A stretch of DNA of 36,417 nucleotides from the NCBI RefSeq assembly GCF_009831555.1, contig NZ_WUUU01000012.1, positions 1-36,417 of the forward strand, written 5' to 3'. Source of the stretch: Halobacterium bonnevillei. Its GTDB lineage: Archaea > Halobacteriota > Halobacteria > Halobacteriales > Halobacteriaceae. This document shows positions 3,518 to 33,109 of the stretch, piece after piece. Every line of letters begins with the position of its first letter. Position 1 is the stretch's first letter. Both the position numbers and the translations under genes were made by a program. Below the pieces are notes generated by a model, which saw only the letters and a list, made by a program, of their open reading frames with translations, ran no database searches and had not been told where the DNA came from.

Positions 3518-4894
3518 TCACTCCTCGCTGTCGCGTTTCGCGTTCAGCTTCGCCTGCTCGCGAGCGCTCGGGTTGACCGACTCCTTGAAGGGGACCTTCG
3601 CGACAGTGGCGAACACGGGTTCTCCGGGTTCCTCGCTGTACTTGTCGGGGAGGTGTACGCGGAACTCGGTGTCCAGGTCGGCGTCGTAGACGCGGTCGTC
3701 GAGTGGCGCCTCCAGTTTCTCCGCCGGCACGAAGCCCAGCGCGATGTTCGTCTCCAGGTCTGGGTTGTACCACGGCGACGTGACGTACCCGCACTCCTCG
3801 CCCGTCTCGGGGTCCGAGATGAGCCAGAAGTCCGGCGCGTAGTCGCGGATCGGCTCGCCCGCCATCTTCAGGCCGACGAGCTTGAGATTGAACGGGTACT
3901 CGCCGTTCTCGATCTGTTCTTTCTGTTCCTCGAGCGCTTCTTTCCCGACGTAGTCGCCGGCCTTGTCGTCCGGCACGTGGTATCCGAGGTTCACCTGGAA
4001 CGGTGACGTCTCGTGGTCCATGTCCTGGCCCCACGAGAGGATGCCGGCGGCGATTCGGCGGTGGTGACCGGGCGCGATCTGCATCCCGCCGTGGTCTTTC
4101 ACCGAGTCCAGGACCGGGTCCCAGACGCGCTCGGCGTTCTTCGAGGCCTCGCGCACGTAGATCTCGAAGCCCTTCTCCCCGGAGAAGCCGGTCTGGCTCA
4201 CGAGGACGTCTGCCCCGTTGATTTCGGCGTCCATCAGCCCGTAGTAGGGGATGTCGCTGACCTCCTCGCCGACGACGTCGATCATCACGTCCTCCGAGCG
4301 CGGGCCCTGAATCTGCATCGGGGCGACGTCGATTTCGTCGACCTCCACGTCGAAGTCCATGCCGACGTTGACGCCCTGAATCCACTGCATGAGCGTCGAG
4401 TCCGAGATCGAGAACCAGAACTCGTCGTCGGCGACCCGCAGGAGCACTGGGTCGTTGAGGATGCCGCCGTCTTCGTTGCAGAGGATGACGTACTTGCCGT
4501 GCATCGACTCGATTTCGGTCGCGTCCCGCGTGATGAGGTAGTCCGTGAGCGCCTCGGCGTCCGGTCCCTTGACGCGAATCTGGCGTTCGACGGCGACGTC
4601 CCAGAGGGTGACGGCGTTCGTCAGCGCTTCGTACTCGGCCATCGCACCACCGTCCTCGGGTTCGACGAGCCCCCTCGGGTGATAGATTCGGTTGTAGACG
4701 GTACAGCGCCAGGCGCCCTCCTCGTTGAACGACTTGTCGAAGAACGGCGACTTGCGGACGCGCGTGGAAACGAGCATCTCGATACCGGGGTCACCGGTCT
4801 GCCGCAGGTTCCGTGGGAGTACGCGGTCCGACTGGTCGACGCTGGGGTGGTTCGGGTGGTCCGCCGACTGCTGTGGGGGTTGGTTGTCCGACAT
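3518..4894 (-). CDS. DmdA/GcvT-like folate-dependent demethylase
   Basis: A 458-residue aminomethyltransferase-family protein. Enzymes of this fold pass a methyl or methylene group from a substrate (glycine cleavage intermediate, DMSP, vanillate) to tetrahydrofolate in the cytosol. Visible hallmarks are GGILNDPVLLRV at about residues 143-154, with the conserved Asp149; the block APMQIQGPRSEDVM at 191-204; and TGFSGEKGFEIYV at 235-247. The NDPVLL motif and the following FWFSISDS read more like DmdA than like true GcvT, but the protein is about 90 residues longer than known DmdA, close to LigM/DesA length. No GcvH, GcvP or other glycine-cleavage gene lies nearby, which argues against a glycine-cleavage role. 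The start at 4894 was chosen over an upstream in-frame extension to 5122 because a TTTTATC element sits about 32 bases before it. The substrate is unproven. Confidence 0.85.
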   Translation of the reverse strand: MSDNQPPQQSADHPNHPSVDQSDRVLPRNLRQTGDPGIEMLVSTRVRKSPFFDKSFNEEGAWRCTVYNRIYHPRGLVEPEDGGAMAEYEALTNAVTLWDVAVERQIRVKGPDAEALTDYLITRDATEIESMHGKYVILCNEDGGILNDPVLLRVADDEFWFSISDSTLMQWIQGVNVGMDFDVEVDEIDVAPMQIQGPRSEDVMIDVVGEEVSDIPYYGLMDAEINGADVLVSQTGFSGEKGFEIYVREASKNAERVWDPVLDSVKDHGGMQIAPGHHRRIAAGILSWGQDMDHETSPFQVNLGYHVPDDKAGDYVGKEALEEQKEQIENGEYPFNLKLVGLKMAGEPIRDYAPDFWLISDPETGEECGYVTSPWYNPDLETNIALGFVPAEKLEAPLDDRVYDADLDTEFRVHLPDKYSEEPGEPVFATVAKVPFKESVNPSAREQAKLNAKRDSEE

Positions 4895-5229
4895 CGGTAC
4901 ATGGTACCGCTCATCCCACCGTGATAAAAGAACGGCGCGATGGCCCACTCGACGAGTCCGCAAGAACGCCGTAAACGCCCTGATAGTGGAAAATACGGGG
5001 TTTTGCCGGGTTTTCTCCGCCGGCGGAATCCCGGTCCAGACGCGTGGGACGCGGCAAACCACGTTATTTCGGATGTTCGACGTGTTGTGCTTCGAAGCCA
5101 CAATCCGCCCGGCGTTCCGCACACTGAAAGCACGGGAGGGCTCTCTCGACGGCCCAGAGAGTCAGTCCGCGTTCCTGACGGGCGAGTGTCACCCGCAGCT
5201 ATTTCGTCACCGGGTTCCTGCACCACACC
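4895..5229. promoter_or_regulatory. Divergent intergenic region with TATA box for the demethylase gene
   Basis: This 335-base gap separates the GcvT-like gene from the small gene at 5230. On the minus strand CTTTTATC (plus-strand 4923-4930) lies about 32 bases before the ATG at 4894. On the plus strand GCTATTTCG, near 5199, lies about 30 bases before the ATG at 5230. Around 4995-5020 the sequence has two close GGGTTTT blocks (ggggttttgccgggttttc), a possible regulator site. No further gene is seen. Confidence 0.45.
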
Positions 5230-5565
5230 ATGGACGACCGAATGGACGAGGTGCCCGACGCCGACCCAGTCGTCTCGTGTTCGCTGCAGGGCGGGACGAT
5301 CTCGGTGTTCGAGGACTGCGTCCTCATCGACCGGTCGTCCGCGTCGATGTTCGAGGACAAACGGATTCCGTTCGAGGAGGTCGAGGGCGTCGAATACGAG
5401 CGCGGATTGATGACTGGTCACGTTCAGGTCCTGCAGACCGACGTCGAACCGGCGGACGCGGGCTTCCTGAGCCATCCGGTCGACGAGAACACGCTGTACG
5501 TTCCGCGCGGGCAACGGGACTGTGCGCAGCGGCTCCGTGACGCCATCCTCGAACGAAGCGTGTGA
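5230..5565 (+). CDS. Small conserved-looking protein of unknown function
   Basis: A 111-residue acidic protein. Alternating hydrophobic strands (VSCSLQGGTISVFEDCVLID, then IPFEEVEGVEYERGLMTGHV) followed by a C-terminal helix (GQRDCAQRLRDAILERS) suggest a compact beta-rich fold ending in a helix, much like PH-type domains. That is inference from the pattern, not a recognised family match. No membrane segment or signal peptide is seen. Its only spatial link to the pathway is that it diverges from the GcvT-like demethylase gene. Function unknown. Confidence 0.6.
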   Translation: MDDRMDEVPDADPVVSCSLQGGTISVFEDCVLIDRSSASMFEDKRIPFEEVEGVEYERGLMTGHVQVLQTDVEPADAGFLSHPVDENTLYVPRGQRDCAQRLRDAILERSV

Positions 5566-5653
5566 CGTGTGAATCAGTGTCACAGGCCGTCTACGGCAAG
5601 TTTTCGGGGTATTACCCGCAAGACTTTCCCGCGTCTACCGCGTTCTCTAAAGT

Positions 5654-6093: not shown

Positions 6094-6112
6094 GGTAGCT
6101 GGTCGTGACCGT

Positions 6113-6970
6113 TCATCCCTGGAGACGCTTGTGTCGCCACGTCTCGGTGTCGGGCACCTGATTGAACGTGTAGACGTGGAGTCCCCGGATGTCGTACGTC
6201 GGGTCGTCGGCGTACGGCGCCAGGCCGTCGACGAGTTCGTCGGGCGTGTACTTCCCCCGCGACCCGATGAGCTGGCGGATGAACCCGAGCACGCCGCTGG
6301 TCTTCTGCAGGAAGCGGACCGAGTCGCCGACGCCGACCTTCTGGGAGATGCCGAGCAAGCGCTGGTACTTCATCACGCCCGGGATGCCGACCTCGACCGG
6401 GAGGTCGATGCCGCGGTCGCGTATCTGTTCGATCCACGAGACGACGGCCGCGGGGTCGTAACAGAGCTGCGTGACGACGTACGTGGCGTACGGTTCCTTG
6501 GCGGCCATTGCTTCCTCGAGGGTCTCGTCGCTGAGGAAGTCGTGGCCCTCCGGGTAGCCGGTGATCCCGACGTCGTCGAAGCTGTACTCGAGGTCCTCGA
6601 GTGCCTGGAGCATGTCGAGGGCGGAGTCGAACTCGCCGGCTGGCTCCTCGCGGTCGCCACCCGGAACGAAGATGTCCGTGACGCCGGCGTCGACGAGCCG
6701 AGCCGCGACCTCGTCGAGGTGGTCGCTGTCCCGGACGTAGCGTGCAGCGATGTGTGGAACGATCTCGTAGCCCTCCGCGGCCGCTTCCTCGGTCCACTCG
6801 ATGGTCGCGTCCAGCCCGAGCGTCGGCGACGTCGTGATTGCGATCGTCGCCCCGTCCGGCAGGTGGACCATCTGCTCGCCGAAGCTGTCGAACGGCATCA
6901 GTTCGTACCGTGGTTCGTCGAGCAACCCCACCTCGTCGGCAGTCGGCGTCGAAGATATGTCCAGTGACAT
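6113..6970 (-). CDS. metF: Methylenetetrahydrofolate reductase (MetF-like)
   Basis: A 285-residue TIM-barrel flavoprotein-type enzyme that interconverts 5-methyl-THF and 5,10-methylene-THF in the cytosol. Family landmarks are GATIAITTSPTLGLD near residues 40-54, EIVPHIAARYVRD at 69-81 (the family's PHLT-type strand), VPGGDREEP at 102-110, the GITGYPEGHDF strand at 135-145, and YVVTQLCYDP at 164-173. It is close to the usual bacterial length. The ATG at 6970 begins the acidic, well-coding part; an upstream start at 7075 would add a basic segment. In a locus also holding FolD, Fhs and formate dehydrogenase, the likely direction is oxidation of methyl-THF, though methionine supply remains possible. 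A likely promoter is AGACCTAATTG (plus-strand near 7070-7080), giving a leader of about 80 bases. Confidence 0.85.
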   Translation of the reverse strand: MSLDISSTPTADEVGLLDEPRYELMPFDSFGEQMVHLPDGATIAITTSPTLGLDATIEWTEEAAAEGYEIVPHIAARYVRDSDHLDEVAARLVDAGVTDIFVPGGDREEPAGEFDSALDMLQALEDLEYSFDDVGITGYPEGHDFLSDETLEEAMAAKEPYATYVVTQLCYDPAAVVSWIEQIRDRGIDLPVEVGIPGVMKYQRLLGISQKVGVGDSVRFLQKTSGVLGFIRQLIGSRGKYTPDELVDGLAPYADDPTYDIRGLHVYTFNQVPDTETWRHKRLQG

Positions 6971-7253
6971 GCTTGCTGTCCGGGGTCCGGCGTTCACGGT
7001 GGCCGCCGTGTCGCGCGGCCATCTCTGGGTCCCGTGTCGCTCGGACGGTGACTGTGGGTTGGGGCGACACGGCAATTAGGTCTTTCCCGCGCCACCGTCT
7101 GACCGTGGAATCGGCGTGCGCGCCCGAGAGACGGCAATTCCTGACAGGCTGCTAGTAGGCTGTGGAACGGTCCGTTGTCGTCACCGGTCGCTCCGTCAAT
7201 ACTTCGACCACACCCACGATTTGATACGGCCGCCGCGAGAACAGCCGGACACA
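6971..7253. promoter_or_regulatory. Divergent metF / folD control region
   Basis: This gap holds no protein gene. On the minus strand an AT-rich CCTAATTG near 7070-7080 may drive metF with a leader of about 80 bases. On the plus strand TTTGATA at 7220-7226 lies 34 bases before the ATG of the folD leader ORF. A nine-base direct repeat, acggcaatt, occurs near 7069 and again near 7131 and could be a regulator site between the two promoters. Confidence 0.4.
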
Positions 7254-7304
7254 ATGCACTGCTTTCACACAGCGCCGGCCGCTGCCGGGGCCGTGGTAGC
7301 GTGA
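7254..7304 (+). CDS. folD leader ORF, 16 codons, overlapping the folD start
   Basis: ATG at 7254 opens a 16-codon reading frame (MHCFHTAPAAAGAVVA) whose TGA at 7302-7304 overlaps the folD GTG at 7301 as GTGA. TTTGATA at 7220-7226 is at the right distance for transcription to start just before this ATG. Translation of the leader would deliver ribosomes to the weak GTG start of folD. Whether the peptide itself matters is unknown. Confidence 0.45.
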   Translation: MHCFHTAPAAAGAVVA

Positions 7305-8224
7305 CGGCGTCCGAGCGTGAGGGCGTCCTCGACGGGAACGTCCTCGATGGCAACGCCGTCAGCGACCGCATCCGCGAGGACCTCCGCGAGTCCATCGACG
7401 CGCTCGACGACGCGGGCGTCACGCCGAGTCTCGCGACGGTCCTCATGAGCACCGACCCCGCCAGCGAGACGTACGTCTCGATGAAACAGCGGGCCTGCGA
7501 CGACCTGAACATCGACAGCGTCCACCGAGAACTCGACGCGGACGCGCCCGCGGCCGAACTCTACGACACCATCGACGATCTGAACGCGGACCCGGACGTC
7601 GACGGGATCCTCGTCCAGATGCCCGTCCCCGACCAGGTGGACAAGCGCCGCGTCCTCCGCAGTATCGACCCGGCGAAGGACGTCGACGGTTTCCACCCCG
7701 AGAACGTCGGTCGCCTCGTCGCCGGGGACCCGCGATTCAAGCCGTGTACGCCCCACGGCATCCAGCGTCTGCTGGACGCGGCAGACGTGGAAACCGAGGG
7801 CGCCCACGCCGTCGTCGTCGGTCGGTCCGACATCGTCGGGAAGCCAATGGCGAACCTCCTCATCCAGAAAGCGCCGGACGGCAACGCGACGGTGACAGTC
7901 TGTCACTCGCGGACCGAGGACCTCGCGTCGATGACGCGCCAGGCCGACATCGTCATCGCCGCCGCCGGGTATCCCGAACTCATCGACGGGTCGATGATCG
8001 GGGACGGCGCCGCAGTCATCGACGTCGGCGTCAACCGCGTCGACGCGGACACCGAGAAGGGCTACGAGCTCGTCGGCGACGTCGACTTCGAGAGCGCGAA
8101 GGGCCCGGCGGACGTCATCACGCCGGTTCCCGGCGGTGTCGGTCCGATGACGATCACGATGCTGCTGTACAACACGGTGAAAGCCGCGAGCCAGCAGGCC
8201 GACGTGTCGGTCGAACTCCCATAG
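7301..8224 (+). CDS. folD: Methylene-THF dehydrogenase / methenyl-THF cyclohydrolase
   Basis: A 307-residue bifunctional cytosolic enzyme oxidising 5,10-methylene-THF to methenyl-THF with NAD(P)+ and hydrolysing that to 10-formyl-THF. Motifs: PASETYVSMKQRACDDL at about 53-69 with the catalytic YxxxK pair (Tyr58, Lys62), VQMPVPDQVDKRRVL at about 105-119, KDVDGFHPENVGRL, the Rossmann segment VVVGRSDIVGKPMANLL, and the C-terminal PGGVGPMTITMLLYN. The GTG at 7301 places the conserved VLDGNAVSDRIRED block near the N-terminus, as in the family; a TTG far upstream at 7175 is unlikely. The start overlaps the stop of a 16-codon leader ORF. FolD is central to both directions of folate C1 flow; with metF, fhs and fdh here it fits methyl oxidation. 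Confidence 0.93.
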   Translation: MTASEREGVLDGNVLDGNAVSDRIREDLRESIDALDDAGVTPSLATVLMSTDPASETYVSMKQRACDDLNIDSVHRELDADAPAAELYDTIDDLNADPDVDGILVQMPVPDQVDKRRVLRSIDPAKDVDGFHPENVGRLVAGDPRFKPCTPHGIQRLLDAADVETEGAHAVVVGRSDIVGKPMANLLIQKAPDGNATVTVCHSRTEDLASMTRQADIVIAAAGYPELIDGSMIGDGAAVIDVGVNRVDADTEKGYELVGDVDFESAKGPADVITPVPGGVGPMTITMLLYNTVKAASQQADVSVELP

Positions 8225-8554: not shown

Positions 8555-9811
8555 ATGGCTCAGGACACCCACGAATCAGTCTCGTTCGCCGACATCGAGG
8601 CCGCACAGGACCGACTCGACGACCCGAGCGTCGTCAAACCCACGCCCGTCGAGCGGAGCACGACCCTCGAGGCGGAGACGAGCGCCGACGAGGTCGCACT
8701 GAAACTCGAACACCTCCAGTGGACGGGCTCGTTCAAGACGCGCGGCGCGTACAACAAGATACGGGCGTCCCTCGCCGAAGGCGACGTCGACCACGTCGTC
8801 GCTGCGAGCGCGGGCAACCACGCACAGGGCGTCGCGCTCGCAGCGACGAAACTCGGGGTCGAATCCACCATCGTCATGCCCAGGAACGCCCCCCAGACCA
8901 AGATCGACGCGACTCGCGGGTACGGCGCCACCGTGGACCTCGTCGGCCAGGACTTCCAGGCGGCGATGGCGCACGCCAAGGAGCTGGTCGAAGGCGGGGA
9001 CGCCGAGTTCGTGCACGCGTACGACGACCCGGCGATCGTCGCAGGCCAGGGCACGCTCGGCGTCGAGATGTACGAGGACCGGCCCCACGTCGACACGGTC
9101 GTCGTGCCGATCGGCGGCGGCGGTCTCATCAGCGGCATCTCGACGGCGTTCGCGGAACTCAGCCCGGAGACGCGGGTCGTCGGCGTCCAGGCAGTGGGCG
9201 CCGCGACTGTCCCCGACAGTCTCGACAAGGGTGTGCCACAGACCCTCGAGTCCGTGGACACCATCGCCGACGGCATCGCGACCGGCGGCGTCTCCGAACT
9301 CACGCTGTCCATCATCGAGGACAACGTCGACGAGGTCGTCACGGTGACGAACGGCGAAATCGCCGACGCCATCCTGCTGTTGATGGAGCGCGCCAAGCAG
9401 GTGGTCGAGGGCGCCGGCGCGGCGGCCGTCGCAGCCATCCGCTCCGAGGACCTCGACGTCAGCGACGAGACCGTGATGCCGCTGCTCTGCGGCGGGAACC
9501 TCGACATGACGATGCTGCGCACCGTCCTCATCCACGCGCTCACGCGTCGCAAGCAGGTCGTTCGGCTCCGAGTCCACATCGAGGACACGCCCGGCAAGAT
9601 GGCCGAACTCTCCGGCATCATCGCGGACCACGACGCGAACATCCAGACCGTGCGCCACGACCGCGCCCTCGAGGACCTCGACGTCGGCGAGGCCTACCTG
9701 ATCTTCCAGATAGAGACCAGCGGCAGACAGCACACGCGGAACATCGTGGATTCCATCGCCGACAACGGCTACCTCGTCGACGTCGAGAACCAGCCCAGCG
9801 GCGAGTTCTGA
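8555..9811 (+). CDS. ilvA: Threonine/serine ammonia-lyase with ACT domain
   Basis: A 418-residue PLP enzyme converting L-threonine to 2-oxobutanoate (or L-serine to pyruvate) and ammonia. The Schiff-base lysine is Lys61 in TGSFKTRGAYNK; ASAGNHAQGVA (84-94) is the substrate loop; GGGGLISG (187-194) binds the PLP phosphate. A C-terminal ACT-like region, about 335-410 (VVRLRVHIEDTPGKMAELSG), indicates allosteric control. The length matches the short, single-ACT catabolic type rather than the long two-ACT biosynthetic IlvA. It follows folD on the same strand. In a glycine- and methylene-THF-producing locus, a role as serine dehydratase feeding pyruvate is attractive, but the substrate preference cannot be read from sequence, so the symbol is only a family label. 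Confidence 0.9.
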   Translation: MAQDTHESVSFADIEAAQDRLDDPSVVKPTPVERSTTLEAETSADEVALKLEHLQWTGSFKTRGAYNKIRASLAEGDVDHVVAASAGNHAQGVALAATKLGVESTIVMPRNAPQTKIDATRGYGATVDLVGQDFQAAMAHAKELVEGGDAEFVHAYDDPAIVAGQGTLGVEMYEDRPHVDTVVVPIGGGGLISGISTAFAELSPETRVVGVQAVGAATVPDSLDKGVPQTLESVDTIADGIATGGVSELTLSIIEDNVDEVVTVTNGEIADAILLLMERAKQVVEGAGAAAVAAIRSEDLDVSDETVMPLLCGGNLDMTMLRTVLIHALTRRKQVVRLRVHIEDTPGKMAELSGIIADHDANIQTVRHDRALEDLDVGEAYLIFQIETSGRQHTRNIVDSIADNGYLVDVENQPSGEF

Positions 9812-10223: not shown

Positions 10224-11999
10224 ATGACCGACGGCGAGGACGAAGCGGTCGGCGAGATGTCGGACGGCCTCCAGGTGGAGCTGTTCCACCCGGACTCGGA
10301 CCGCGAACCGGGCGACACCAACATCCAGAAGTGGGGATTCGACATCCACCCGGTGGTGTTTCCGGTGGCGCTCGCCGTCATCGCGTTGTTCATCGCCGTC
10401 ACAATAATCCTCGGCCAGGACGCCGCCGACGCATACACGTGGCTGTTCAACTTCATCGGCGACAACTTCGGCTGGTTCTACCTGCTGGCGGTGAACTTCT
10501 TCATCGTCGTACTGTTGTACTTCGCGCTGAGCAAGTACGGAAACATCAAGATTGGCGGCGTCGAGGCCGACAAGGAATTCAGCGACTTCTCGTGGATGGC
10601 CATGCTGTTCAGCGCCGGCATGGGGATCGGCCTCATGTTCTTCAGCGTGCTGGAACCCGTCTTCTACTTCTCGAGCGTTCCGGGGTTCTGGGGAGCTGAA
10701 GCAGGGACAGGCGCCGCGGCCTCCGCCGCGATGGCGCAAACCTTCTTCCACTGGGGCTTCCACCCGTGGGCCATCTACGGGCTCGTCGGGCTCGGACTGG
10801 CATTCTTCTCGTTCAATCGCGGGCTGCCGCTGACGTTCCGGTCGATCTTCTGGCCGCTGCTCGGCGAACGGATCTACGGTTGGCCCGGGCACATCATCGA
10901 CCTCGTGACCGTGTTCGCGACACTGTTCGGCCTGGCGACGTCGCTCGGCCTCGGTGTCGCACAGGTCAACCGGGGAATCCAGTACGTCTCCGTCGACATA
11001 CTTGGCGTTCTTGGGAGCGTCCCGAACACCACGATGTCGCAGATTCTACTGATCGCGCTCATCACCGGCATCGCGACGTTGTCAGTCGCTGCCGGTCTCG
11101 AAGGTGGGGTCAAGCGACTGAGCACGCTCAACCTCTACCTGATGTTAGCCCTGCTCGGATTCCTCCTGATCGTCGGACCCACCATCTTCATCTTCGGCGC
11201 GTGGGTCGAAGGGCTGGGCACGTACTTCGGGAACGTCATCGAACTCGGCTTCTTCCGGGGTGCGATGGGCGCCGGTGGTGGAACCGTGACCGCGTGGACA
11301 GTGTTCTACTGGGGCTGGTGGATCGCGTGGTCGCCGTTCGTGGGGATGTTCATCGCCCGCATCTCCAAGGGACGGACCATCCGCGAGTTCGTGCTCGGGG
11401 TTCTGTTCCTCCCGGCGCTGTTCTCGACCATCTGGCTCGCGACATTCGGTGGCAGCGCGCTAGCGCCGTCGGTCACGGGCGAAGGCACTGGCGCGGTCGT
11501 GGGCGCGTACAACGAACTTGGCTACGCCGCGTTCGAAACGCTCGGAATGTTCGTGACGCTGGAGCAGTACCCGCTCGGCGCCATCACCGCGTCGCTGGCA
11601 ACGCTGCTCGTGATCACGTTCTTCGTCACGTCCTCCGACTCGGGGTCGCTGGTCATTGACCACTTGACCTCGGGCGGCAAGCACGACGTGCCGAAGACCC
11701 AGCGCATCTTCTGGGCCGTCACCGAAGGCGCAGTCGCTGCGCTGCTCCTGTACGGCGGCGGCCTGGACGCGTTGCAGACCGCAGCGATCACGACCGGGCT
11801 GCCGTTCGCGTTCATCCTCTGCCTGATGAGTTACACGGTGTATCTCGGCCTCAGCAACGAGTACGAGATCCTCGAGTCTGAGGAGTTCGCGGAAACCATC
11901 GAAGACATTGCGGCCGAAGGTGACGTGGAGGTGGTAACGACTGGCGACCAGATGGTGACGGACATCAGCGAGGAGGACGAACCAGCGAGCGGCGACTGA
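10224..11999 (+). CDS. BCCT-family betaine/choline/carnitine transporter, BetP-like
   Basis: A 591-residue membrane carrier with about 12 membrane segments between residues 42 and 560. The unwound first-repeat helix carries AGMGIGLMFFSVLEP (131-145), the GMGIG pattern of Na+-coupled BetP. The substrate cage is clear: WTVFYWGWWIAWSPFVGMF at 358-376, with four tryptophans at BetP-equivalent spacing for binding a quaternary ammonium group. Hydrophilic acidic tails flank the core (residues 1-35 and about 545-591). Uptake of glycine betaine or a similar onium compound with Na+ is the best prediction. It may serve osmoprotection, carbon supply for the demethylation genes around it, or both. A Shine-Dalgarno site and a long leader precede it, and a T run follows. 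Confidence 0.92.
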   Translation: MTDGEDEAVGEMSDGLQVELFHPDSDREPGDTNIQKWGFDIHPVVFPVALAVIALFIAVTIILGQDAADAYTWLFNFIGDNFGWFYLLAVNFFIVVLLYFALSKYGNIKIGGVEADKEFSDFSWMAMLFSAGMGIGLMFFSVLEPVFYFSSVPGFWGAEAGTGAAASAAMAQTFFHWGFHPWAIYGLVGLGLAFFSFNRGLPLTFRSIFWPLLGERIYGWPGHIIDLVTVFATLFGLATSLGLGVAQVNRGIQYVSVDILGVLGSVPNTTMSQILLIALITGIATLSVAAGLEGGVKRLSTLNLYLMLALLGFLLIVGPTIFIFGAWVEGLGTYFGNVIELGFFRGAMGAGGGTVTAWTVFYWGWWIAWSPFVGMFIARISKGRTIREFVLGVLFLPALFSTIWLATFGGSALAPSVTGEGTGAVVGAYNELGYAAFETLGMFVTLEQYPLGAITASLATLLVITFFVTSSDSGSLVIDHLTSGGKHDVPKTQRIFWAVTEGAVAALLLYGGGLDALQTAAITTGLPFAFILCLMSYTVYLGLSNEYEILESEEFAETIEDIAAEGDVEVVTTGDQMVTDISEEDEPASGD

Positions 12000-12104: not shown

Positions 12105-12329
12105 TCAGTAGTACTTCCACTCGTCGTCGTCCTCGCTGCGTTCGACGCTGTCGTCCTCCTCAGGCTCCCGGTCCTCGGGCCACTCGATGCCGTCACCGCG
12201 GAGGCTCTTGTACGCGAACGAACCGAGAGCGACGAGCGCGAGCACGAGCACGAGCGTGCCTGCGAGGACTGCGACCTGGCCGACCGATTCCAGGAGCCCG
12301 CCACTGATCTGGAGTATCGCGGCGCTCAT
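12105..12329 (-). CDS. Small single-helix membrane protein
   Basis: A 74-residue protein from the ATG at 12329 (MSAAILQISGGLLESVG). One long membrane helix, about residues 16-41 (QVAVLAGTLVLVLALVALGS), is followed by a strongly acidic tail (DREPEEDDSVERSEDDDE) ending in WKYY. An alternative TTG start at 12356 would add nine residues. It faces the BetP-like transporter convergently and precedes another membrane-protein gene on the same strand, from which it may be cotranscribed (gap 91 bases). The family is not recognised. Confidence 0.6.
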   Translation of the reverse strand: MSAAILQISGGLLESVGQVAVLAGTLVLVLALVALGSFAYKSLRGDGIEWPEDREPEEDDSVERSEDDDEWKYY

Positions 12330-13976: not shown

Positions 13977-14417
13977 TCAGTCGTTGACGGACATCCGGAC
14001 CGTCAAGACCGGCACTTCCGACGTCCGCACGACCTTGTCGGAGGTGCTCCCGAGGAGCGCCTTGAACTTGCCCTGGTAGGCCGTCCCGAGCACGATGGCA
14101 TCGAGATCGTTGTCATTCGCGTAGTCGACAATCTCCTCCGCGGGCGACCCGGTTCTGATCGCAGTCGTACAGTCGACGTCCACCTCCGCCGCTTTGTCAC
14201 AGATCTCCGACGTGGCTTGTTCGCCGTACTCCCGGTAGTCCTCGCGCATCTCCTCCTCGTCGTCGCGGATGTAGACTGTTCGCGGCGCGCCCGGCAGGTC
14301 GATCACGTAGAGTGCGTGGATCGATGCGCCGAGTGCCGCTGCGAGTTCGATTCCCTGTTCGGCGCCTCGTCGCGCTTCGTCGCTCCCGTCGTACGGAATA
14401 AGGATGGTGTCGTACAT
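13977..14417 (-). CDS. UspA-type universal stress protein
   Basis: A 146-residue single-domain UspA protein. MYDTILIPYDGSDEARRGAE opens the fold with the conserved Asp of the nucleotide site (DGS), and the C-terminal LGTAYQGKFKALLGSTSDKV followed by PVLTVR corresponds to the ATP-binding Gly/Ser loop and final strand. It is probably a soluble ATP-binding dimer. In many archaea such proteins are encoded beside transporters and channels, and here it sits between the BetP-like carrier and a potassium channel, so a role in osmotic control is a reasonable guess. A clear TATA element (plus-strand 14448-14459) lies about 35 bases upstream of the ATG. Confidence 0.9.
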   Translation of the reverse strand: MYDTILIPYDGSDEARRGAEQGIELAAALGASIHALYVIDLPGAPRTVYIRDDEEEMREDYREYGEQATSEICDKAAEVDVDCTTAIRTGSPAEEIVDYANDNDLDAIVLGTAYQGKFKALLGSTSDKVVRTSEVPVLTVRMSVND

Positions 14418-15972: not shown

Positions 15973-15995
15973 TCGAAGCAGTACGGACGGTCGAC

Positions 15996-16003
15996 GTAAA
16001 AAC
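15996..16003 (-). promoter_or_regulatory. TATA box of the potassium-channel gene
   Basis: On the minus strand GTTTTTAC has its first T 30 bases upstream of the GTG at 15972. It supports the unusual GTG start and a leaderless transcript. Confidence 0.5.
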
Positions 16004-16111
16004 GTATCCGGGCGTTCGGCCCCTCACAGGTCGGTTTCCCGCCTTGACCTCGGGGAACGTCCGCCACAGTGACGCGTCGACGACGGTTGGCGGCACACGC
16101 GACGATACGTC

Positions 16112-16117
16112 TTTAAT
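16112..16117 (+). promoter_or_regulatory. TATA box of the second BCCT gene
   Basis: TTTAAT begins 28 bases before the ATG at 16140. It favours that ATG over the in-frame ATG at 16116, which lies inside the element itself. Confidence 0.5.
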
Positions 16118-16139
16118 GTGTGAATTGAAAGCATACGGC

Positions 16140-27326: not shown

Positions 27327-28715
27327 GTGACTGACGACACGGACGCTGGCGACCCGCTCGAAGCTCTCGACACCCGGACTCGTGGGCGCGTGCTCGAACC
27401 CGGTGACTCCGGATACGACGACGCCCGCAGTGTGTGGAACGCGCGAATCGACCGCTATCCGAGCGCAGTGCTGGCGTGTTCGGGCACCGCAGACGTCCTG
27501 GCCGGGGTCGAGGTCGCTCGCGAGCACGGACTGGAACTCTCCGTCAAGAGCGGCGGACACCACGTTTCCGGCAGCGCGGTCTGCGATGACGGCATCGTCC
27601 TCGACCTCGGTCCGATGGACTGGGTCCGCGTGGACCCCGAGGCGCAAACGGCGTGGGTCGGCCCCGGTGCGACGTGGGGAGACGTCGACCACGAGACGGC
27701 GGCGTTCGGCCTCGCCGTGCCGGGCGGCCAGGACCCAAACATCGGCGTCTCCGGCCTGACGCTGGGCGGCGGCGTCGGCTGGCTCAGCCGCACCCACGGA
27801 CTCACCAGCGACAACCTCCTCTCGGCCGACGTCGTCACGGCCGACGCCGAACTGGTCCACGCCAGTTCCGACGAACACGCGGACCTGTTCTGGGCGCTCC
27901 GTGGCGGCGGCGGCAGTTTCGGCGTCGTCACCGGCTTCGAGTTCCGCTTGCACGAGGTCGACGAGGTGTTCGCGGGGTCCCTGATATATCCGATGGCGGA
28001 CGCGCGCGCCGTCGCTCGCCGCTACGAGTCGTTCGTGGCCGACGCGCCACGCGAGGTGCGAGTGCTGTTCGGCAGCATGGTGTTACCGGCGTCCCCGGTC
28101 TTCCCGGAGGAGGTACGCGACAGCCGGGTCGCCATCCTGATCGCGTGCTACGCTGGACCACCTGCGGAGGCGAACCGCGTCCTCGAGCCGCTTCGCTCGT
28201 TCGGTGACCCGCTGCTGGACAGCATGCGTCCGCGCTCGTACGTGGCGTTCCAGGGTGCGGGGGAGAGCCGCGGTCGCATGCGAACGCACCTCCGGAGTCA
28301 CTACCTCCCGGAGCTACCGGTGGACGCCATCGACACCATCGCCGACCACGCGGCTGCCGCCCCGTCGGCAGGAGCGACCGTGTTCCTCTCGCCGCGTGGC
28401 GGGGCGGAGACGGCGCCGGAGGCGGACGCGACCGCGTACCCCCACCGGGACGCCGCACACCACCTCCTCGTCGAGGCTCGGTGGGACAGTCCCGATGCGG
28501 ACGACCGACACGTCGAGTGGGTCGACCGGTTGCACGAAGCCGTCCAGCCGTACGCGACCGGCGACGCGGCGATGAACTTCCTCAGCGAGGACGAGCCCGA
28601 ACGCCGCGTCCGGGCGGCCTACGGCGGCAACTACGAGCGGCTCGTCGAGGTCAAGCGGACGTGGGACCCGGAGAATCTGTTCACCGCGAGCCACCTCGTG
28701 GACCCGAGCGGCTGA
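27327..28715 (+). CDS. FAD-dependent oxidoreductase of the berberine-bridge/6-hydroxynicotine oxidase type
   Basis: A 462-residue flavoprotein. The FAD_binding_4 domain (about 40-215) has KSGGHHVSGSAVCDDGIVLD with the histidine expected to bind FAD (His78 or His79), followed by GPGATWGDVDHETAAFGLAV and PGGQDPNIGVSGLTLGGGVG, then WLSRTHGLTSDNLLSADVVT. The second cysteine tether of bicovalent members is absent (GQDPNIG instead of a GxC type). The C-terminal BBE segment YGGNYERLVEVKRTWDPENL (about residues 433-452) is intact. Relatives oxidise diverse alcohols, sugars and C-N bonds, often with O2. Inserted between fhs and fdhA, it could be an N-methyl or amine oxidase, but this is inference from place only. 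The GTG start has GGAGG 9 bases upstream, and it may be read from fhs 98 bases away. Confidence 0.88.
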   Translation: MTDDTDAGDPLEALDTRTRGRVLEPGDSGYDDARSVWNARIDRYPSAVLACSGTADVLAGVEVAREHGLELSVKSGGHHVSGSAVCDDGIVLDLGPMDWVRVDPEAQTAWVGPGATWGDVDHETAAFGLAVPGGQDPNIGVSGLTLGGGVGWLSRTHGLTSDNLLSADVVTADAELVHASSDEHADLFWALRGGGGSFGVVTGFEFRLHEVDEVFAGSLIYPMADARAVARRYESFVADAPREVRVLFGSMVLPASPVFPEEVRDSRVAILIACYAGPPAEANRVLEPLRSFGDPLLDSMRPRSYVAFQGAGESRGRMRTHLRSHYLPELPVDAIDTIADHAAAAPSAGATVFLSPRGGAETAPEADATAYPHRDAAHHLLVEARWDSPDADDRHVEWVDRLHEAVQPYATGDAAMNFLSEDEPERRVRAAYGGNYERLVEVKRTWDPENLFTASHLVDPSG

Positions 28716-29251: not shown

Positions 29252-31390
29252 ATGTCGAGTGACGAACAGCAACCGGTCGAAACCATCTGTCCGTACTGCG
29301 GCGTCGGCTGCGGCATCAAGGTACAGCCGGGCGAGGCGCCCGAAGACATGCGGTTCATGCCCTGGGGCGACGCACCCGTCAACGAGGGGCGAGTCTGCAT
29401 CAAGGGCGGCGCCGCGACGGAAGTCGTCGGCCACGAAGACCGCCTCACCGAACCGCTGATCAGAGAAGACGGGGAGTTCCGGGAGGCCACCTGGGAGGAG
29501 GCGCTCACCCGCGTCGTCGACGAGCTCTCGCGCATCCGGGAGGAGCACGACCCGGACGCGATGGGCTTCTTCGGGTCGTCGAAGACGATGAACGAGGAGA
29601 ACTACCTCCTCCAGAAGCTCGCGCGCCGCTACGGCACCAACAACGTCGACAACTGCACCCGCATGTGCCACGCGTCCACCGTCTGGGCGCTGCGCACCAG
29701 CCTCGGTGCCGGTGCCATGACCAACAGCATGGCCGACCTGGAGGAAGCGGCGGACGTGCTCTGGATCCAGGGCGCCAACCCCGGCGAACAACACCCCATC
29801 GCCAACAGCCAGTACTTCCGACAGGCAGTCCTGGAGGGCGCGACGGTCATCCAGGTCGACCCGCACGCGAACAAGACCACGCGGTCGTTCGAAATCGAGG
29901 AGACCGACCGCCACATGCACCTCCAGCTCGAGCCCGGGACCGACATCCCGCTGCTGAACATCGTCATCAAGACGATTCTCGACCGCCACGACGAGAACCC
30001 CGACGAGGGCTGGATCGACGAGACGTTCATCGAGGAGCGGACCGAGGGCTTCGAGGACCTGCGGGAGACCCTCGAGGGCTTCGACAAGGAAGCGGCGGCC
30101 GAGGAGTGCGGCGTCCCCCTGGAGGACATCGAGCGAGCCGCCGAGAAGTACGCGATGGGGAACAACTCCGCCATCTTCACCGGGATGGGGATGAGCCAGC
30201 ACACCTGCGGGGTCGACAACGTTCAGAACGAGATCAACCTCGCGCTCATCACCGGGAACCTCGGGAAGCCGGGCACGGGCGTCAACCCGCTGCGCGGCCA
30301 GAACAACGTCCAGGGGACGAGTGACGTCGGCGCGATGCCGAACGTCCTCCCGGGCTACCAGCTCGTCGACGACGACGAAGCCAGGGAGAGCGTTGAGGAC
30401 GTCTGGGGCTTCGAAGTCCCGGACGAACCGGGACTGACGAACGTCGAAATATCCCGGGCCGCCGGGGACACCGTCCAGGGGCTGTACATCATGGGCGAGA
30501 ACCCCGTCATGTCGGAACCGGACGGCAACCACGTCGAAGAGCGCCTCGACGACCTCGAGTTCGTGGTCGTCCAGGACATCTTCCTGACGGAGACCGCGGA
30601 CTACGCGGACGTCGTGTTGCCCGCGACGACGTGGGCGGAGCGGGGCGGGACCGTCACGAACACCGACCGCCGCGTCCAGCGCATGCGGCCCGTCGAGAAG
30701 GTCCACGAGAACACCAGACACGACCTCGACATCCTCACGGAAGTCGGCACGCGACTGTTCGGCGAGGACGCCGGGTTCGACTTCGACGACCCCGAGGAGG
30801 TCTTCGAGGAACTCCGGGAAGTCTGCCCCATCTACCACGGAATGACCTACGACACCCTCGGGACCGAGGGCATCCAGTGGCCGTGCTACGAACCGGGCGA
30901 CGAGGGCGACCAGTTCCTCTACGAGAACTCCTTCGACACGGACAACGGGCTCGGCCAGATCGAGGGCGTGCGACACCAGGAGCCCAAGGAGACGCCCGAC
31001 GAGGAGTACCCGCTGATACTCACGACCGCGCGCCTCGAAGAGCACTACAACACTGGCACGATGAGTCGGCGTTCGCCGACGCTGAACCGCCAGCACCCCG
31101 AGAACTTCGTCGACATCCACCCGAAGGACGCCGAGCGATACGGCATCGACGACGGCGACGAGGTGACGGTGACCTCTCGGCGCGGCGAAATCACCGTCGA
31201 GGCGCACGTCACTGAGGACATCAAGGAGGGCGTCATCTGGACGACGCCGCACTTCGCGGACGCGTCAGCGAACCGCCTCACGAACGACGTGCTCGACGAG
31301 CGTGCGAAGATTCCCGAGTACAAGGCCGCCGCTGCCGAGATATCGGTGGACGTCGAGCGGGCCGACGGCGACGCCCCGGCGGACGACTGA
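29252..31390 (+). CDS. fdhA: Formate dehydrogenase catalytic subunit (molybdopterin)
   Basis: A 712-residue molybdopterin oxidoreductase predicted to oxidise formate to CO2. Cys13, Cys16, Cys20 and Cys49 (CPYCGVGC, then RVCIKGG) bind a [4Fe-4S] cluster. The Mo/W ligand is Cys139 followed by His140 in NCTRMCHAS, the same CH/UH pair as E. coli FdhF, here with cysteine and not selenocysteine. ADVLWIQGANPGEQHPIANS and MGMSQHTCGVDNVQNEINLA are typical FdhF-type segments, and the C-terminal Molydop_binding domain starts near LILTTARLEEHYNTGTMSRR. No Tat signal is present, so it is cytosolic. No beta/gamma or diaphorase subunit is encoded beside it. The natural role here is removing formate released by Fhs. 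Confidence 0.9.
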   Translation: MSSDEQQPVETICPYCGVGCGIKVQPGEAPEDMRFMPWGDAPVNEGRVCIKGGAATEVVGHEDRLTEPLIREDGEFREATWEEALTRVVDELSRIREEHDPDAMGFFGSSKTMNEENYLLQKLARRYGTNNVDNCTRMCHASTVWALRTSLGAGAMTNSMADLEEAADVLWIQGANPGEQHPIANSQYFRQAVLEGATVIQVDPHANKTTRSFEIEETDRHMHLQLEPGTDIPLLNIVIKTILDRHDENPDEGWIDETFIEERTEGFEDLRETLEGFDKEAAAEECGVPLEDIERAAEKYAMGNNSAIFTGMGMSQHTCGVDNVQNEINLALITGNLGKPGTGVNPLRGQNNVQGTSDVGAMPNVLPGYQLVDDDEARESVEDVWGFEVPDEPGLTNVEISRAAGDTVQGLYIMGENPVMSEPDGNHVEERLDDLEFVVVQDIFLTETADYADVVLPATTWAERGGTVTNTDRRVQRMRPVEKVHENTRHDLDILTEVGTRLFGEDAGFDFDDPEEVFEELREVCPIYHGMTYDTLGTEGIQWPCYEPGDEGDQFLYENSFDTDNGLGQIEGVRHQEPKETPDEEYPLILTTARLEEHYNTGTMSRRSPTLNRQHPENFVDIHPKDAERYGIDDGDEVTVTSRRGEITVEAHVTEDIKEGVIWTTPHFADASANRLTNDVLDERAKIPEYKAAAAEISVDVERADGDAPADD

Positions 31391-31641
31391 GGCGGCCTCG
31401 ACCACTGCCAGCATCCCACGTTCCCTTTCGAATTCCTGCGACAGGGGGTCGCGTCTCTGGACGCCGTCACGGACCACTTCGACAGGTGCCGGTTCCGCGC
31501 CGCGAACCACGACGCGACAGGAGACTGATTGGTCATGGAGCGCCACGCGACCGAGTACTGCGTTCGTTGGATGCGGCCACCGGCGGGGCGAACCCGGGGA
31601 CAGCGACAAGGCGGATTCGAGAACGCCCCGCACGCGGGAAT

Positions 31642-31648
31642 CCTTATG
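31642..31648 (+). promoter_or_regulatory. TATA-like element of the MttB-family gene
   Basis: CCTTATG is centred about 28 bases before the GTG at 31673. It supports that leaderless GTG start over the longer open frame beginning at 31529. Confidence 0.4.
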
Positions 31649-31672
31649 TGCGGCTGCCGGAAACGGGTGGGC

Positions 31673-33109
31673 GTGGCGGATTTCAACACGGCCTCGACTG
31701 CCGTGCCGACCCTCGAGTGGCTCGACAGCGACGGCGTCGACGCCGTCAACGACGCCTCGATGCGCATCATCGAAGAACTCGGCATCCAGCTGGGCCACGA
31801 GCCGGCTCGCGCCCTCGTCAGCGCGAACGGCGGCACGGTCGACGAGGACGGCGTCGCGACGCTCCCTCGCGAGGTCGTCGTGGACGCCGTCGACCGCGCT
31901 CCGTCGTCGTTCACACTGCACGCCCGGAACCCGGACCACGACGTTACCGTGGGCGGGGACAGCCCGCCCGTCCGAGCCCCGAGTTACGGCCCGTCGACAG
32001 TGCGCACCTTCGACGACGGACGGCGGGACGCGACCCTGGCGGACTACGAGACGCTGGTGAAACTCGCGCACGCCGAGGACGTCATCACGTGCTCCGGGTA
32101 CAACCTCTGTGAACCGACGGACGTCGACCAGCGGGACCGACACCTCAGAATGCTCGAACGGTCGCTGACGCTCTCGGACAAGCCGGTCATGGGGCCGACC
32201 CACGGCCGCGAGCGCGCCGAAGCGTGCATGGACATGGTCGGCATCGCGATGGACGACCCAGACCTCTCACGGCCGCTCGTGGCCGGACTCATCAACACAG
32301 TCCCCCCGCGGCGCATCGACGCCGAGATGCTCGGGGGCCTGCTGACGTACGCCGAGCACGGCCAGCCGCTGGTCGTCTCGTCGTTCACGATGGCCGGTGC
32401 GTCCGGACCCCCGTCGCTGGGCGCGTCGCTGGCCCAGGCCAACGCCGAGAACCTGGTCGCCATCGCGCTCGCCCAGTTCGTCAATCCCGGGACGCCCGTG
32501 GTGTACGGCGTCCCCTCGGCGATGGTCGACGACCGGTACGGGTCGCTGTCCATCGGCAGTCCCGAATCGGCGCTGTTCGCCGCGTTCGCCGGCCAGATGG
32601 CGCGACGCTACGGCCTTCCGTCGCGAGGGGGCGGTTCGCTCTCGGACGCGAAGACCGTCGACTACCAGAGCGGGTTCGAGTCGACGCTCGTCGGCGCGGC
32701 GACGGCGTTCAGCGGGGTCGACTTCGCCCTCAACGCGGCTGGCGTCCTGGAGTCGTACTCGGCGGTCTCCCCGGAGAAGTTCGTCCTCGACTGCGAGGCG
32801 TTGCGCTCCCTGGACTACCTCCGGACCGGGGTTCCGGTCGACAGCGAAACCATCTCCCTCGAGCGGATTGCGGATACGGACCCGGCGGGGCACTTTCTCG
32901 ACGACGCGCGGTCAGCCGGCCGGCCGTCGTACCAGTCCGCGGTACTGGACAAACAGTCACACGACGCCTGGGCCGACGACGGCGAGCGGTCCGCGTTCGA
33001 ACTGGGACGCGAACGCGTCCGGTGCCTCCTCGAGGACTACGAGGCACCGCCGATGGACGACAGGACCGCGCGCGCTATCGAGGAGTACGTCGTGGACCAC
33101 GCGGCGTGA
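31673..33109 (+). CDS. MttB-family (non-pyrrolysine) methyltransferase
   Basis: A 478-residue TIM-barrel methyltransferase of the trimethylamine/glycine-betaine methyltransferase superfamily. Typical segments are VNDASMRIIEELGIQLGHEP near the N-terminus, the APSYGPSTVRTFDDG strand, DYETLVKLAHAEDVITCSGY, SSFTMAGASGPPSLGASLAQ with ANAENLVAIALAQFVNPGTP, then GSPESALFAAFAGQMARRYG and SRGGGSLSDAKTVDYQSGFE. No in-frame TAG exists, so it belongs to the Pyl-free branch that includes glycine betaine methyltransferase MtgB. Such enzymes move a methyl group to a corrinoid protein, but no corrinoid protein or activase gene is nearby. The GTG start at 31673 is preferred because it gives the family length and has a TATA-like element. 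Betaines are the best guess; proline betaine, carnitine or others are possible. Confidence 0.87.
   Translation: MADFNTASTAVPTLEWLDSDGVDAVNDASMRIIEELGIQLGHEPARALVSANGGTVDEDGVATLPREVVVDAVDRAPSSFTLHARNPDHDVTVGGDSPPVRAPSYGPSTVRTFDDGRRDATLADYETLVKLAHAEDVITCSGYNLCEPTDVDQRDRHLRMLERSLTLSDKPVMGPTHGRERAEACMDMVGIAMDDPDLSRPLVAGLINTVPPRRIDAEMLGGLLTYAEHGQPLVVSSFTMAGASGPPSLGASLAQANAENLVAIALAQFVNPGTPVVYGVPSAMVDDRYGSLSIGSPESALFAAFAGQMARRYGLPSRGGGSLSDAKTVDYQSGFESTLVGAATAFSGVDFALNAAGVLESYSAVSPEKFVLDCEALRSLDYLRTGVPVDSETISLERIADTDPAGHFLDDARSAGRPSYQSAVLDKQSHDAWADDGERSAFELGRERVRCLLEDYEAPPMDDRTARAIEEYVVDHAA

What the first reader, a model, noticed from the sequence alone, without database searches (positions are those of the whole stretch)
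3518..33109. Haloarchaeal folate-linked demethylation island for betaine-type osmolytes
Within 30 kb lie two BCCT carriers, an MttB-family methyltransferase, a DmdA/GcvT-like demethylase, a DMGDH-GcvT fusion with its own ETF pair, MetF, FolD, Fhs, a formate dehydrogenase catalytic subunit and FolC-FolP. Each family is established. Together they would suffice for uptake, demethylation and complete THF-linked oxidation of methyl groups to CO2, with ATP from Fhs run backwards. The genes lie on both strands in small units, so this is a cluster and not a single operon. An aerobic archaeon mineralising an osmoprotectant's methyl groups through bacterial-style folate chemistry, in place of methanogen-style methanopterin, would be notable.
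Basis: partly seen in the sequence, partly recalled or inferred. Interest (0 to 1): 0.85.

Follow-up and report, generated by a model that had tools for sequence, protein, structure and literature searches.

The report
Haloarchaeal folate-linked betaine-demethylation island
This salt-loving archaeon carries a movable block of genes that looks built to import glycine betaine, strip off its methyl groups and burn them through folate chemistry, probably with an unexpected demethylating enzyme at the first step and a second one that seems to have lost its usual vitamin B12 partner.

Summary
All named families are present between 3518 and 33109, in a block collinear with three Halopenitus genomes. 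The host is another genus: beside the block lie host-genus genes, so it looks horizontally acquired.

A close DmdA-like homologue occurs in 30 of 145 haloarchaeal genomes. All 30 also carry Fhs and a DMGDH-GcvT fusion; in 24 of 30 the DMGDH is within 25 kb. Of DMGDH-positive genomes without it, 11 of 12 carry a GbcA-like Rieske gene beside the DMGDH, against 4 of 30 with it. I infer that this DmdA-clade protein performs the first betaine demethylation, onto folate.

MttB is not sufficient as assumed. Of 16 haloarchaeal MttB genomes, 11 show no corrinoid cap-domain protein; the same 11 show no RamA activase. A conserved motif in the loop region that contacts the corrinoid protein in M. barkeri MttB is missing from all 10 such MttBs aligned, yet MttB is under purifying selection in Halopenitus.

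Haloarchaeal folate use and possible betaine use were already published. The DmdA-for-GbcA exchange and the partnerless MttB were not found in my searches. No substrate was tested.

The parts
398..1054 (-). HTH_10 (Bat-type) transcription regulator, left part of the collinear block
   Evidence: PF04967 51.8 bits; 63-64% identical and same place in Halopenitus
1280..1960 (-). second HTH_10 regulator
   Evidence: PF04967 48.3 bits; collinear in Halopenitus
2151..3239 (-). acidic protein of unknown family, recurrent in related islands
   Evidence: no Pfam or NCBIfam hit; tblastn matches in Halopenitus and other islands
3518..5122 (-). DmdA-clade, GcvT-fold THF-dependent demethylase-like protein (conserved part 3518-4864); inferred betaine:THF methyltransferase
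   Evidence: GCV_T/GCV_T_C; in one clade (100/100) with bacterial DmdA and DmdA-like proteins, apart from GcvT, Tdm and DMGDH; model matches GcvT and DmdA
6113..7075 (-). divergent methylenetetrahydrofolate reductase (MetF-like)
   Evidence: PF02219 41.2 bits, cut-off 24; within 10 kb of the DmdA-like gene in 15 of 18 loci read
7175..8224 (+). FolD, methylene-THF dehydrogenase/cyclohydrolase
   Evidence: NF010764 537.9 bits, cut-off 477
8555..9811 (+). threonine/serine-type ammonia-lyase; inferred exit serine -> pyruvate + NH3
   Evidence: TIGR01127 439.7 bits, cut-off 378.75; present in related islands
10224..11999 (+). BCCT carrier 1
   Evidence: PF02028 576.2 bits; TIGR00842 456.4 bits, cut-off 407.55
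13977..14417 (-). universal stress protein beside the carriers
   Evidence: PF00582 112.7 bits; same place in related islands
14722..15972 (-). K+ channel with TrkA-N domain
   Evidence: PF02254, PF07885; collinear in Halopenitus
15957..18020 (+). BCCT carrier 2 (true start likely near 16400)
   Evidence: PF02028 418.7 bits over residues 168-651
18053..19027 (-). EtfA
   Evidence: PF00766, PF01012
19024..19785 (-). EtfB
   Evidence: PF01012
19934..22543 (-). dimethylglycine dehydrogenase-GcvT fusion
   Evidence: DAO+FAO_M+GCV_T+GCV_T_C; best PDB hit dimethylglycine oxidase 1pj5, E 3.8e-149
22737..25178 (-). FolC-FolP fusion, in this genome a second copy beside one on another contig
   Evidence: PF00809 and Mur ligase domains; other strong copy at G000:C108
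25483..27228 (+). Fhs, formate-THF ligase
   Evidence: NF010030 816.4 bits, cut-off 652
27327..28715 (+). BBE-type FAD oxidoreductase right after Fhs
   Evidence: PF01565, PF08031; also right beside Fhs in G063, 67% identical
29252..31390 (+). formate dehydrogenase alpha subunit
   Evidence: TIGR01591 749.2 bits, cut-off 666.25
31529..33109 (+). MttB-superfamily (MtgB-like, no in-frame amber codon) methyltransferase without a detected corrinoid partner; homology from about 31667
   Evidence: PF06253 434 bits; model TM 0.92 to MtgB 9yce/2qne; no PF02607 or PF14574 in this draft genome
33131..35978 (.). right flank: host-genus genes (unknown protein, Zn-ribbon, ribulose-1-phosphate aldolase, HAD) and tRNA-Glu; island ends between 33109 and 33131
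   Evidence: same order in three genomes of the host genus with 61-91% identity; tRNA-Glu; among 30 genomes searched the HAD gene's best hits are same-genus

Best explanation
A horizontally acquired catabolic island for glycine betaine. Shown: the genes, their conserved grouping and their distribution. Inferred: all reactions. BCCT carriers import betaine. The DmdA-clade protein moves one methyl from betaine to tetrahydrofolate, giving dimethylglycine and 5-methyl-THF, in place of the GbcA-type Rieske oxygenase found beside the DMGDH in other haloarchaea. The DMGDH-GcvT fusion with its ETF takes one or both remaining methyls as methylene-THF. The MetF-like protein and FolD oxidise the C1 units to formyl-THF. 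Fhs run backwards releases formate and ATP, and formate dehydrogenase makes CO2. Glycine leaves as serine and then pyruvate through the ammonia-lyase. MttB is an additional methyltransferase of betaine-type ammonium compounds that in this lineage no longer works with a corrinoid carrier protein; its acceptor is unknown.
For: Families. Conserved island: Halopenitus, Haloarcula hispanica pHH400, Halomicrococcus, Halobellus limi with glyA and ilvA in the same stretch. Co-occurrence: DmdA-like 30 of 145, all 30 with Fhs (54 of 145) and a DMGDH fusion (42 of 145). DMGDH within 25 kb in 24 of 30; Fhs within 40 kb in 22 of 27 same-contig pairs. GbcA-like Rieske within 5 kb of DMGDH in 11 of 12 DmdA-like-negative against 4 of 30 DmdA-like-positive genomes, Fisher 3e-6; Fhs 1 of 12 against 30 of 30. 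Within one family (f4) the Rieske split is 5 of 5 against 1 of 12, p 0.001. One such Rieske protein (G100) is nearest carnitine monooxygenase, then stachydrine demethylase-type oxygenases, in the PDB (the name stachydrine demethylase for 3vca/4qup is recalled). DmdA-clade placement. Low dN/dS among three Halopenitus: DmdA-like 0.09-0.11, DMGDH 0.08-0.10, Fhs 0.06-0.11, MttB 0.12-0.15.
Against: Nothing here tests a substrate. The closest bacterial homologues in the tree (Phaeobacter, Loktanella, 40-41%) sit with enoyl-CoA hydratase and acyl-CoA synthetase genes, as in DMSP pathways. Four genomes carry both the DmdA-like gene and a Rieske gene beside DMGDH; in G080 they are neighbours. Counting PF00848 anywhere in the genome the contrast shrinks to 12 of 12 against 11 of 30. 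In six of 30 genomes the DMGDH fusion is not within 25 kb. The Rieske contrast is weaker by genus (6 of 7 against 3 of 13, p 0.017) and not significant within family f3 (4 of 4 against 2 of 4, p 0.43). BHMT was not searched. In three of 18 loci no MetF-like gene was seen in the stretch read. No glyA homologue was found in the window. Only one DMGDH fusion with a strong score is listed for this draft genome, so the sarcosine step is uncertain. H. [quoted passage not shown] walsbyi (PMC3102087); I did not check whether they carry this gene set.
Confidence: 0.58

Rival explanations
1. The DmdA-like protein is a DMSP (or other sulfonium) demethylase, and the DMGDH half handles dimethylglycine and sarcosine from elsewhere; the island serves a mix of methylated osmolytes.
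For: It lies in the DmdA superclade with support 100/100. The closest bacterial homologues lie in DMSP-like operons. That betaine carriers also carry DMSP is general knowledge, recalled.
Against: It misses the DMSP-demethylase cut-off (246.6 of 410). No acyl-CoA ligase or enoyl-CoA hydratase family was hit among the 30 window ORFs scanned. It is found only in genomes with a DMGDH fusion (30 of 30) and mostly where a betaine-type Rieske gene beside DMGDH is missing.
Confidence: 0.22
2. MttB is the first-step enzyme in the classical way: betaine to a corrinoid protein to THF, as in Desulfitobacterium and Ruegeria.
For: Fold and active-site stretches are MtgB-like. In Halomicrococcus the same plasmid has MttB with corrinoid protein, RamA-type, DUF1638 and MtrH genes. 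Genome G001 has corrinoid protein, MtrH and RamA homologues in its island.
Against: In the window's genome and 10 other haloarchaeal MttB genomes neither PF02607 nor PF14574 is found. The only PF02310 proteins found in four of them (G000, G017, G061, G063) are methylmalonyl-CoA mutase domains; G098 had none; the other six were not searched with PF02310. None of 10 MttB rows from such genomes keeps the HT motif. Caveat: of the 11 genomes only four are listed at 99% completeness, the window's own is at 92%, and for six no completeness is given.
Confidence: 0.08
3. The C1 genes serve biosynthesis (formate to methyl-THF for purines and methionine), as proposed for Halodesulfurarchaeum, and the osmolyte genes are neighbours by chance.
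For: The C1 genes there were read that way, with oxidation of surplus C1 units as an option (PMC5437934 section 15 and passages).
Against: The genes recur with BCCT, DMGDH, ETF and ammonia-lyase in several haloarchaeal families. Fhs is missing from 91 of 145 genomes. That paper does not mention betaine (0 occurrences).
Confidence: 0.1

Closest known systems
Aerobic MtgBCD glycine betaine demethylation of Ruegeria pomeroyi (PMC12478193; abstract and passages read)
   Same: MttB-family protein, oxidation of methyl-THF through folate, serine exit by an ammonia-lyase
   Different: needs corrinoid protein MtgC and pterin protein MtgD, with RamA and DUF1638 proposed for reactivation; no homologue of corrinoid protein, RamA, DUF1638 or MtrH was found in this window
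SAR11 methylovory (PMC3160333; abstract and passages read)
   Same: dmdA, dmgdh, sardh, metF, folD, fhs, fdh for THF-linked oxidation of methyl groups to CO2
   Different: BHMT is the assigned betaine step there and DmdA acts on DMSP; here the DmdA-clade protein is proposed for betaine
DMSP demethylase DmdA
   Same: GcvT fold; same superclade, support 100/100
   Different: 35-37% identity to two annotated DmdAs; misses the NCBIfam cut-off; different gene neighbours
Desulfitobacterium MtgB (2qne, 9yce)
   Same: 39% identity, TM 0.92; active-site stretch conserved
   Different: no corrinoid protein detected in the genome; loop motif HT lost
Haloarchaeal DMG oxidase beside BCCT carriers (PMC3102087; passages read)
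   Same: the DMGDH and BCCT part of this island, possible betaine use suggested
   Different: no first-step enzyme, no folate oxidation chain and no MttB proposed in the passages read
Halodesulfurarchaeum formicicum C1 gene set (PMC5437934; passages and section 15 read)
   Same: FDH, Fhs, MetF, FolD, ETF and a GcvT-type gene numbered close together (HTSR_1736-1750)
   Different: read there as formate and biosynthetic C1 metabolism; betaine and corrinoid not mentioned

Membership tests
MttB superfamily (PF06253) | family profile and fold | tested here: met
   434 bits, cut-off 25; model TM 0.92 to MtgB
Pyrrolysine-type trimethylamine methyltransferase (TIGR02369) | equivalog cut-off and in-frame amber codon | tested here: not met
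   273.4 bits, cut-off 525; the reading frame 31529-33109 is open without an inner stop
Corrinoid-dependent quaternary amine methyltransferase system (MtgB with MtgC and partners) | corrinoid carrier protein and reductive activase in the genome | tested here: not met
   no PF02607, no PF14574 in G000; draft genome 92% complete, but same result in four related genomes listed at 99% (G017, G061, G063, G098)
DMSP demethylase DmdA | curated cut-off NF009133 | tested here: not met
   246.6 bits, cut-off 410
DmdA superclade of GcvT-fold proteins | groups with DmdA apart from GcvT, Tdm and DMGDH | tested here: met
   100/100 branch, 20-row tree; the tool warns of long branches
Glycine betaine:THF methyltransferase | catalytic activity on betaine | not testable with these tools
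   inferred from exchange with a GbcA-like gene
GcvT of the glycine cleavage system | curated cut-off TIGR00528 | tested here: not met
   138 bits, cut-off 235.85
Dimethylglycine dehydrogenase/oxidase fusion | DAO, FAO_M, GCV_T, GCV_T_C in one chain | tested here: met
   PDB 1pj5 E 3.8e-149
Fhs | curated cut-off NF010030 | tested here: met
   816.4 bits, cut-off 652
Formate dehydrogenase alpha | curated cut-off TIGR01591 | tested here: met
   749.2 bits, cut-off 666.25
Bacterial-type MTHFR (TIGR00676) | curated cut-off | tested here: not met
   50.8 bits, cut-off 293.7; PF02219 gathering score is met
Glycine betaine BCCT transporter (NF047988) | curated cut-off | tested here: not met
   505.6 and 355.5 bits, cut-off 650; both exceed the general PF02028 cut-off

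The most novel reading that the evidence does not exclude
A corrinoid-free MttB: a quaternary-amine methyltransferase that has shed the corrinoid protein and the activase, eroded the loop region that in M. barkeri MttB docks the corrinoid protein, kept its barrel and active site under selection, and hands the methyl group directly to another acceptor, most likely tetrahydrofolate in the place of the corrin ring.
Probability: 0.3. Interest if true: 0.85.

Novelty: new variant of a known kind. Interest (0 to 1): 0.6.

Why it matters
If right, haloarchaea have two exchangeable ways to open glycine betaine, a Rieske oxygenase and a folate-dependent DmdA-clade transferase. The second would be an archaeal first step that needs neither oxygen nor B12, for one of the common osmolytes of brines, and would link brine algae and bacteria to archaeal CO2 release. 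The MttB part matters more if true: the MttB-family enzymes described in the papers I read hand their methyl group to a corrinoid protein, so one without a partner would show how such an enzyme can change acceptor. Both claims can be tested in culturable strains.

Tried and rejected
Misbinned contig: rejected. The right flank matches the host genus in order and identity, and tetranucleotide correlation is 0.98-0.99 to 10 of 11 sampled contigs of the same genome, against 0.89-0.95 to three Halopenitus chromosome samples and 0.95-0.97 to the two Halopenitus island pieces compared.

MttB as a decaying pseudogene: rejected for Halopenitus (dN/dS 0.12-0.15; window against G017 0.24 with dS near 0.9). 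In Halarchaeum nitratireducens only the part matching residues 227-521 was found.

Pyrrolysine in G063: the TAG reported is the terminal stop.

A hidden corrinoid protein among PF02310 hits: those of G000, G017, G061 and G063 are methylmalonyl-CoA mutase C-terminal domains; G098 had no hit.

FolC-FolP as the missing pterin methyltransferase: it passes the DHPS model (256.4, cut-off 162.6). In Halopenitus this island copy has dN/dS 0.30-0.40 and in G017 its open frame is shorter, so I read it as a spare folate gene.

A second DmdA-like subfamily (about 70% identical) as the DMSP enzyme: sulfur genes lie beside it in one Haloarcula plasmid, but tblastn with those sulfur genes found none in the seven other loci of this subfamily read; left open.

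Print searches: searches listed no paper that, by its listing or the passages I read, describes a haloarchaeal MttB or a DmdA-clade betaine demethylase. The library holds only openly licensed PMC papers.

Rows dropped: six short MttB fragments, one of them the Halarchaeum remnant; L029 and L165 from the DmdA tree, because the coordinates I gave ran through an upstream stop. L044 in the MttB tree is a duplicate of G063 that I had labelled as bacterial.

The first corrinoid profile had wrong-frame seeds; rebuilt.

Full report
WHAT IS THERE. The window is one whole contig (C12) of a draft haloarchaeal genome. Several assignments are at family level only. The DmdA/GcvT-like protein scores 246.6 bits on the DMSP demethylase model (cut-off 410) and 138 bits on TIGR00528 GcvT (cut-off 235.85), so it is neither by curated rule. 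The MetF-like protein passes PF02219 (41.2, cut-off 24) but not TIGR00676. The BCCT carriers pass PF02028 but not the betaine-specific model. FolD, Fhs, formate dehydrogenase alpha and the ammonia-lyase pass their cut-offs.

THE ISLAND AND ITS HOST. From the HTH_10 genes at 398 to MttB at 33109 the order follows that of three Halopenitus genomes, though some window genes (FolD, BBE, formate dehydrogenase) were not matched at that place there. Two of these genomes match H. persicus and H. malekzadehii contigs by length. Identities to Halopenitus are 90% for the DmdA-like protein, 88-89% DMGDH, 85% Fhs and 68% MttB. The order breaks after MttB. The next genes (33131-35871) and tRNA-Glu are in the same order in three genomes of the host genus; a fourth (G012) showed only two of the genes and no tRNA in the stretch read. 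Among 30 genomes searched, the HAD gene has its best hits (79-80%) in the host genus and nothing close in Halopenitus. Of eight other genomes of the host genus sampled, none has MttB or a close DmdA-like homologue. The block therefore looks acquired. Its composition fits the host: correlation 0.98-0.99 to 10 of 11 sampled contigs.

CO-OCCURRENCE. In 145 genomes of the class, drawn from a larger group: MttB 7; DMGDH-GcvT fusion with best E below 1e-100 in 42; DmdA-like at 78% identity or more in 30; Fhs 54. All 30 DmdA-like genomes have Fhs and a DMGDH fusion, and all 7 MttB genomes are among the 30. DMGDH lies within 25 kb of the DmdA-like gene in 24 of 30. The other six are two at 154-174 kb (G001, G007), one at 110 kb, one at 459 kb and two on other contigs. 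A MetF-like gene is within 10 kb in 15 of 18 loci read; in the other three (G014, G075, G130) the stretch read was shorter than 10 kb on each side. Named examples: Haloarcula hispanica pHH400, HAH_RS18200-18295; Halomicrococcus gelatinilyticus; Halobellus limi, where glyA and ilvA lie in the same stretch but no Fhs was seen there.

THE FIRST STEP. Twelve of the 42 DMGDH genomes lack the DmdA-like gene. All twelve have a PF00848 match and eleven have it within 5 kb of the DMGDH; the exception is G053. Of the 30 with the DmdA-like gene, eleven have a PF00848 match. In four it lies within 5 kb of a DMGDH (G051, G080, G130, G132), in two about 98 and 119 kb away (G126, G030), and in five far away or on other contigs (G017, G061, G064, G095, G098). 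Fisher p for the 5-kb count is 3e-6 by genome; by genus it is 6 of 7 against 3 of 13, p 0.017. Within family f4 it is 5 of 5 against 1 of 12, p 0.001; within f3 it is 4 of 4 against 2 of 4, p 0.43. The Rieske protein of G100 is nearest carnitine monooxygenase among solved structures. Two such proteins have GbcA as best NCBIfam match, far under the cut-off (136.9 and 131.5 of 670). Fhs is present in 1 of the 12 and 30 of the 30. The simplest reading is an exchange. A Rieske oxygenase would release formaldehyde (general knowledge), while a DmdA-clade transferase would load folate and so need MetF, FolD, Fhs and formate dehydrogenase. This is inference. The clade also holds annotated DMSP demethylases, and homologues at 40-41% in Phaeobacter and Loktanella lie beside enoyl-CoA hydratase and acyl-CoA synthetase genes. 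A Lichenihabitans homologue (39%) lies beside MetF, FolD and PurU.

MTTB WITHOUT ITS PARTNER. The passages I read describe MttB-type betaine demethylation as a system with a corrinoid protein, a pterin methyltransferase and a reactivase (PMC12478193). The corrinoid cap domain PF02607 is found in 5 (G001, G007, G148, G149, G154) and not in 11. RamA (PF14574) is found in exactly the same 5. Of the 11, four are listed at 99% completeness (G017, G061, G063, G098), one is the window's own at 92%, and for six no completeness is given. In 19 of 19 bacterial MttB genomes PF02607 is found; RamA in 4 of 4 tested. But in three of the 19 (G159 Frigidibacter, G162 and G163 Haematobacter) the only hit lies in a frame of 1266-1296 residues, as in MetH, so a partnerless MttB may not be confined to haloarchaea. 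In the corrinoid-bearing haloarchaea the parts lie near the island or on the same plasmid: Halomicrococcus has MtrH, DUF1638, RamA-like (ASKHA) and corrinoid genes about 30 kb from MttB; G001 has corrinoid protein, MtrH and RamA homologues in its island.

The MttB tree puts the haloarchaeal sequences together. The rows from corrinoid-lacking genomes plus Halomicrococcus form one clade (SH-aLRT 97, quick search). At window MttB residues 461-462, 6 of 8 haloarchaeal rows from corrinoid-bearing genomes read HT (the other two, the second MttB of G001 and G007, do not), Halomicrococcus reads RT, and 0 of 10 rows from corrinoid-lacking genomes keep either letter. In bacteria 58 of 62 rows keep T (50 as HT); the four without are one fragment and three Haematobacter rows, two of which come from the MetH-only genomes above, while Frigidibacter keeps HT. 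The Fisher value for T among haloarchaea is 7e-4, with rows that are not independent. By the alignment the site falls at residues 423-424 of M. barkeri MttB, inside loop 396-452, which contacts the corrinoid protein (PMC9842639 passages). Whether those two residues touch it I could not see. The active-site stretch around GGG(S/G)LSDAK is kept, and dN/dS among three Halopenitus is 0.12-0.15. In seven named loci (L086-L092) MttB is followed by Fhs on the same strand about 150-300 bp after the end of its match. So MttB appears to be in use but no longer docked to a corrinoid protein. The acceptor is unknown; THF and free cobalamin are both open.

LIMITS. No substrate, expression or growth data. 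Draft genomes. Co-occurrence is confounded by kinship and by joint transfer of the island. BHMT and a genome-wide MtrH search were not done. 

Noticed in passing
G000:C3:80482-81819: A second DmdA-like subfamily (about 70% identical) occurs here and in other haloarchaea, mostly without folate or DMGDH genes seen beside it; in Haloarcula sp. GH36 it lies beside TusA, DsrE and YeeE/YedE genes.
   Followed up: partly
L096 9773-10900: Halarchaeum nitratireducens: only the part matching window MttB residues 227-521 was found, in an island-like neighbourhood.
   Followed up: partly
L152, L153, L154 (Haematobacter MttB loci): Three Haematobacter MttBs lack the HT loop motif; in the two genomes searched the only corrinoid cap-domain hit is in a MetH-size frame. 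A possible parallel, RamA not tested there.
   Followed up: partly
window 22737-25178: Island FolC-FolP is a second copy in this and several genomes, evolves fast in Halopenitus and has a shorter frame in G017.
   Followed up: partly
G000:C1:1-20000 (L211): Start of the largest contig read of the draft genome has 48.7% GC and tetranucleotide correlation near 0.3 to the other contigs: foreign DNA or a bin error.
   Followed up: no
window 34385-35871: Haloarchaeal-type ribulose-1-phosphate aldolase (NF053831, 351.5 bits, cut-off 300) next to a HAD hydrolase, conserved in the host genus.
   Followed up: no
window 12105-13512: Small membrane-type reading frames beside BCCT1 recur next to BCCT1 and Usp in many islands.
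   Followed up: no
L227 10162-10755: Haloarcula hispanica pHH400 has a cyclodeaminase/cyclohydrolase-family gene and a dihydrofolate reductase gene in the island.
   Followed up: no
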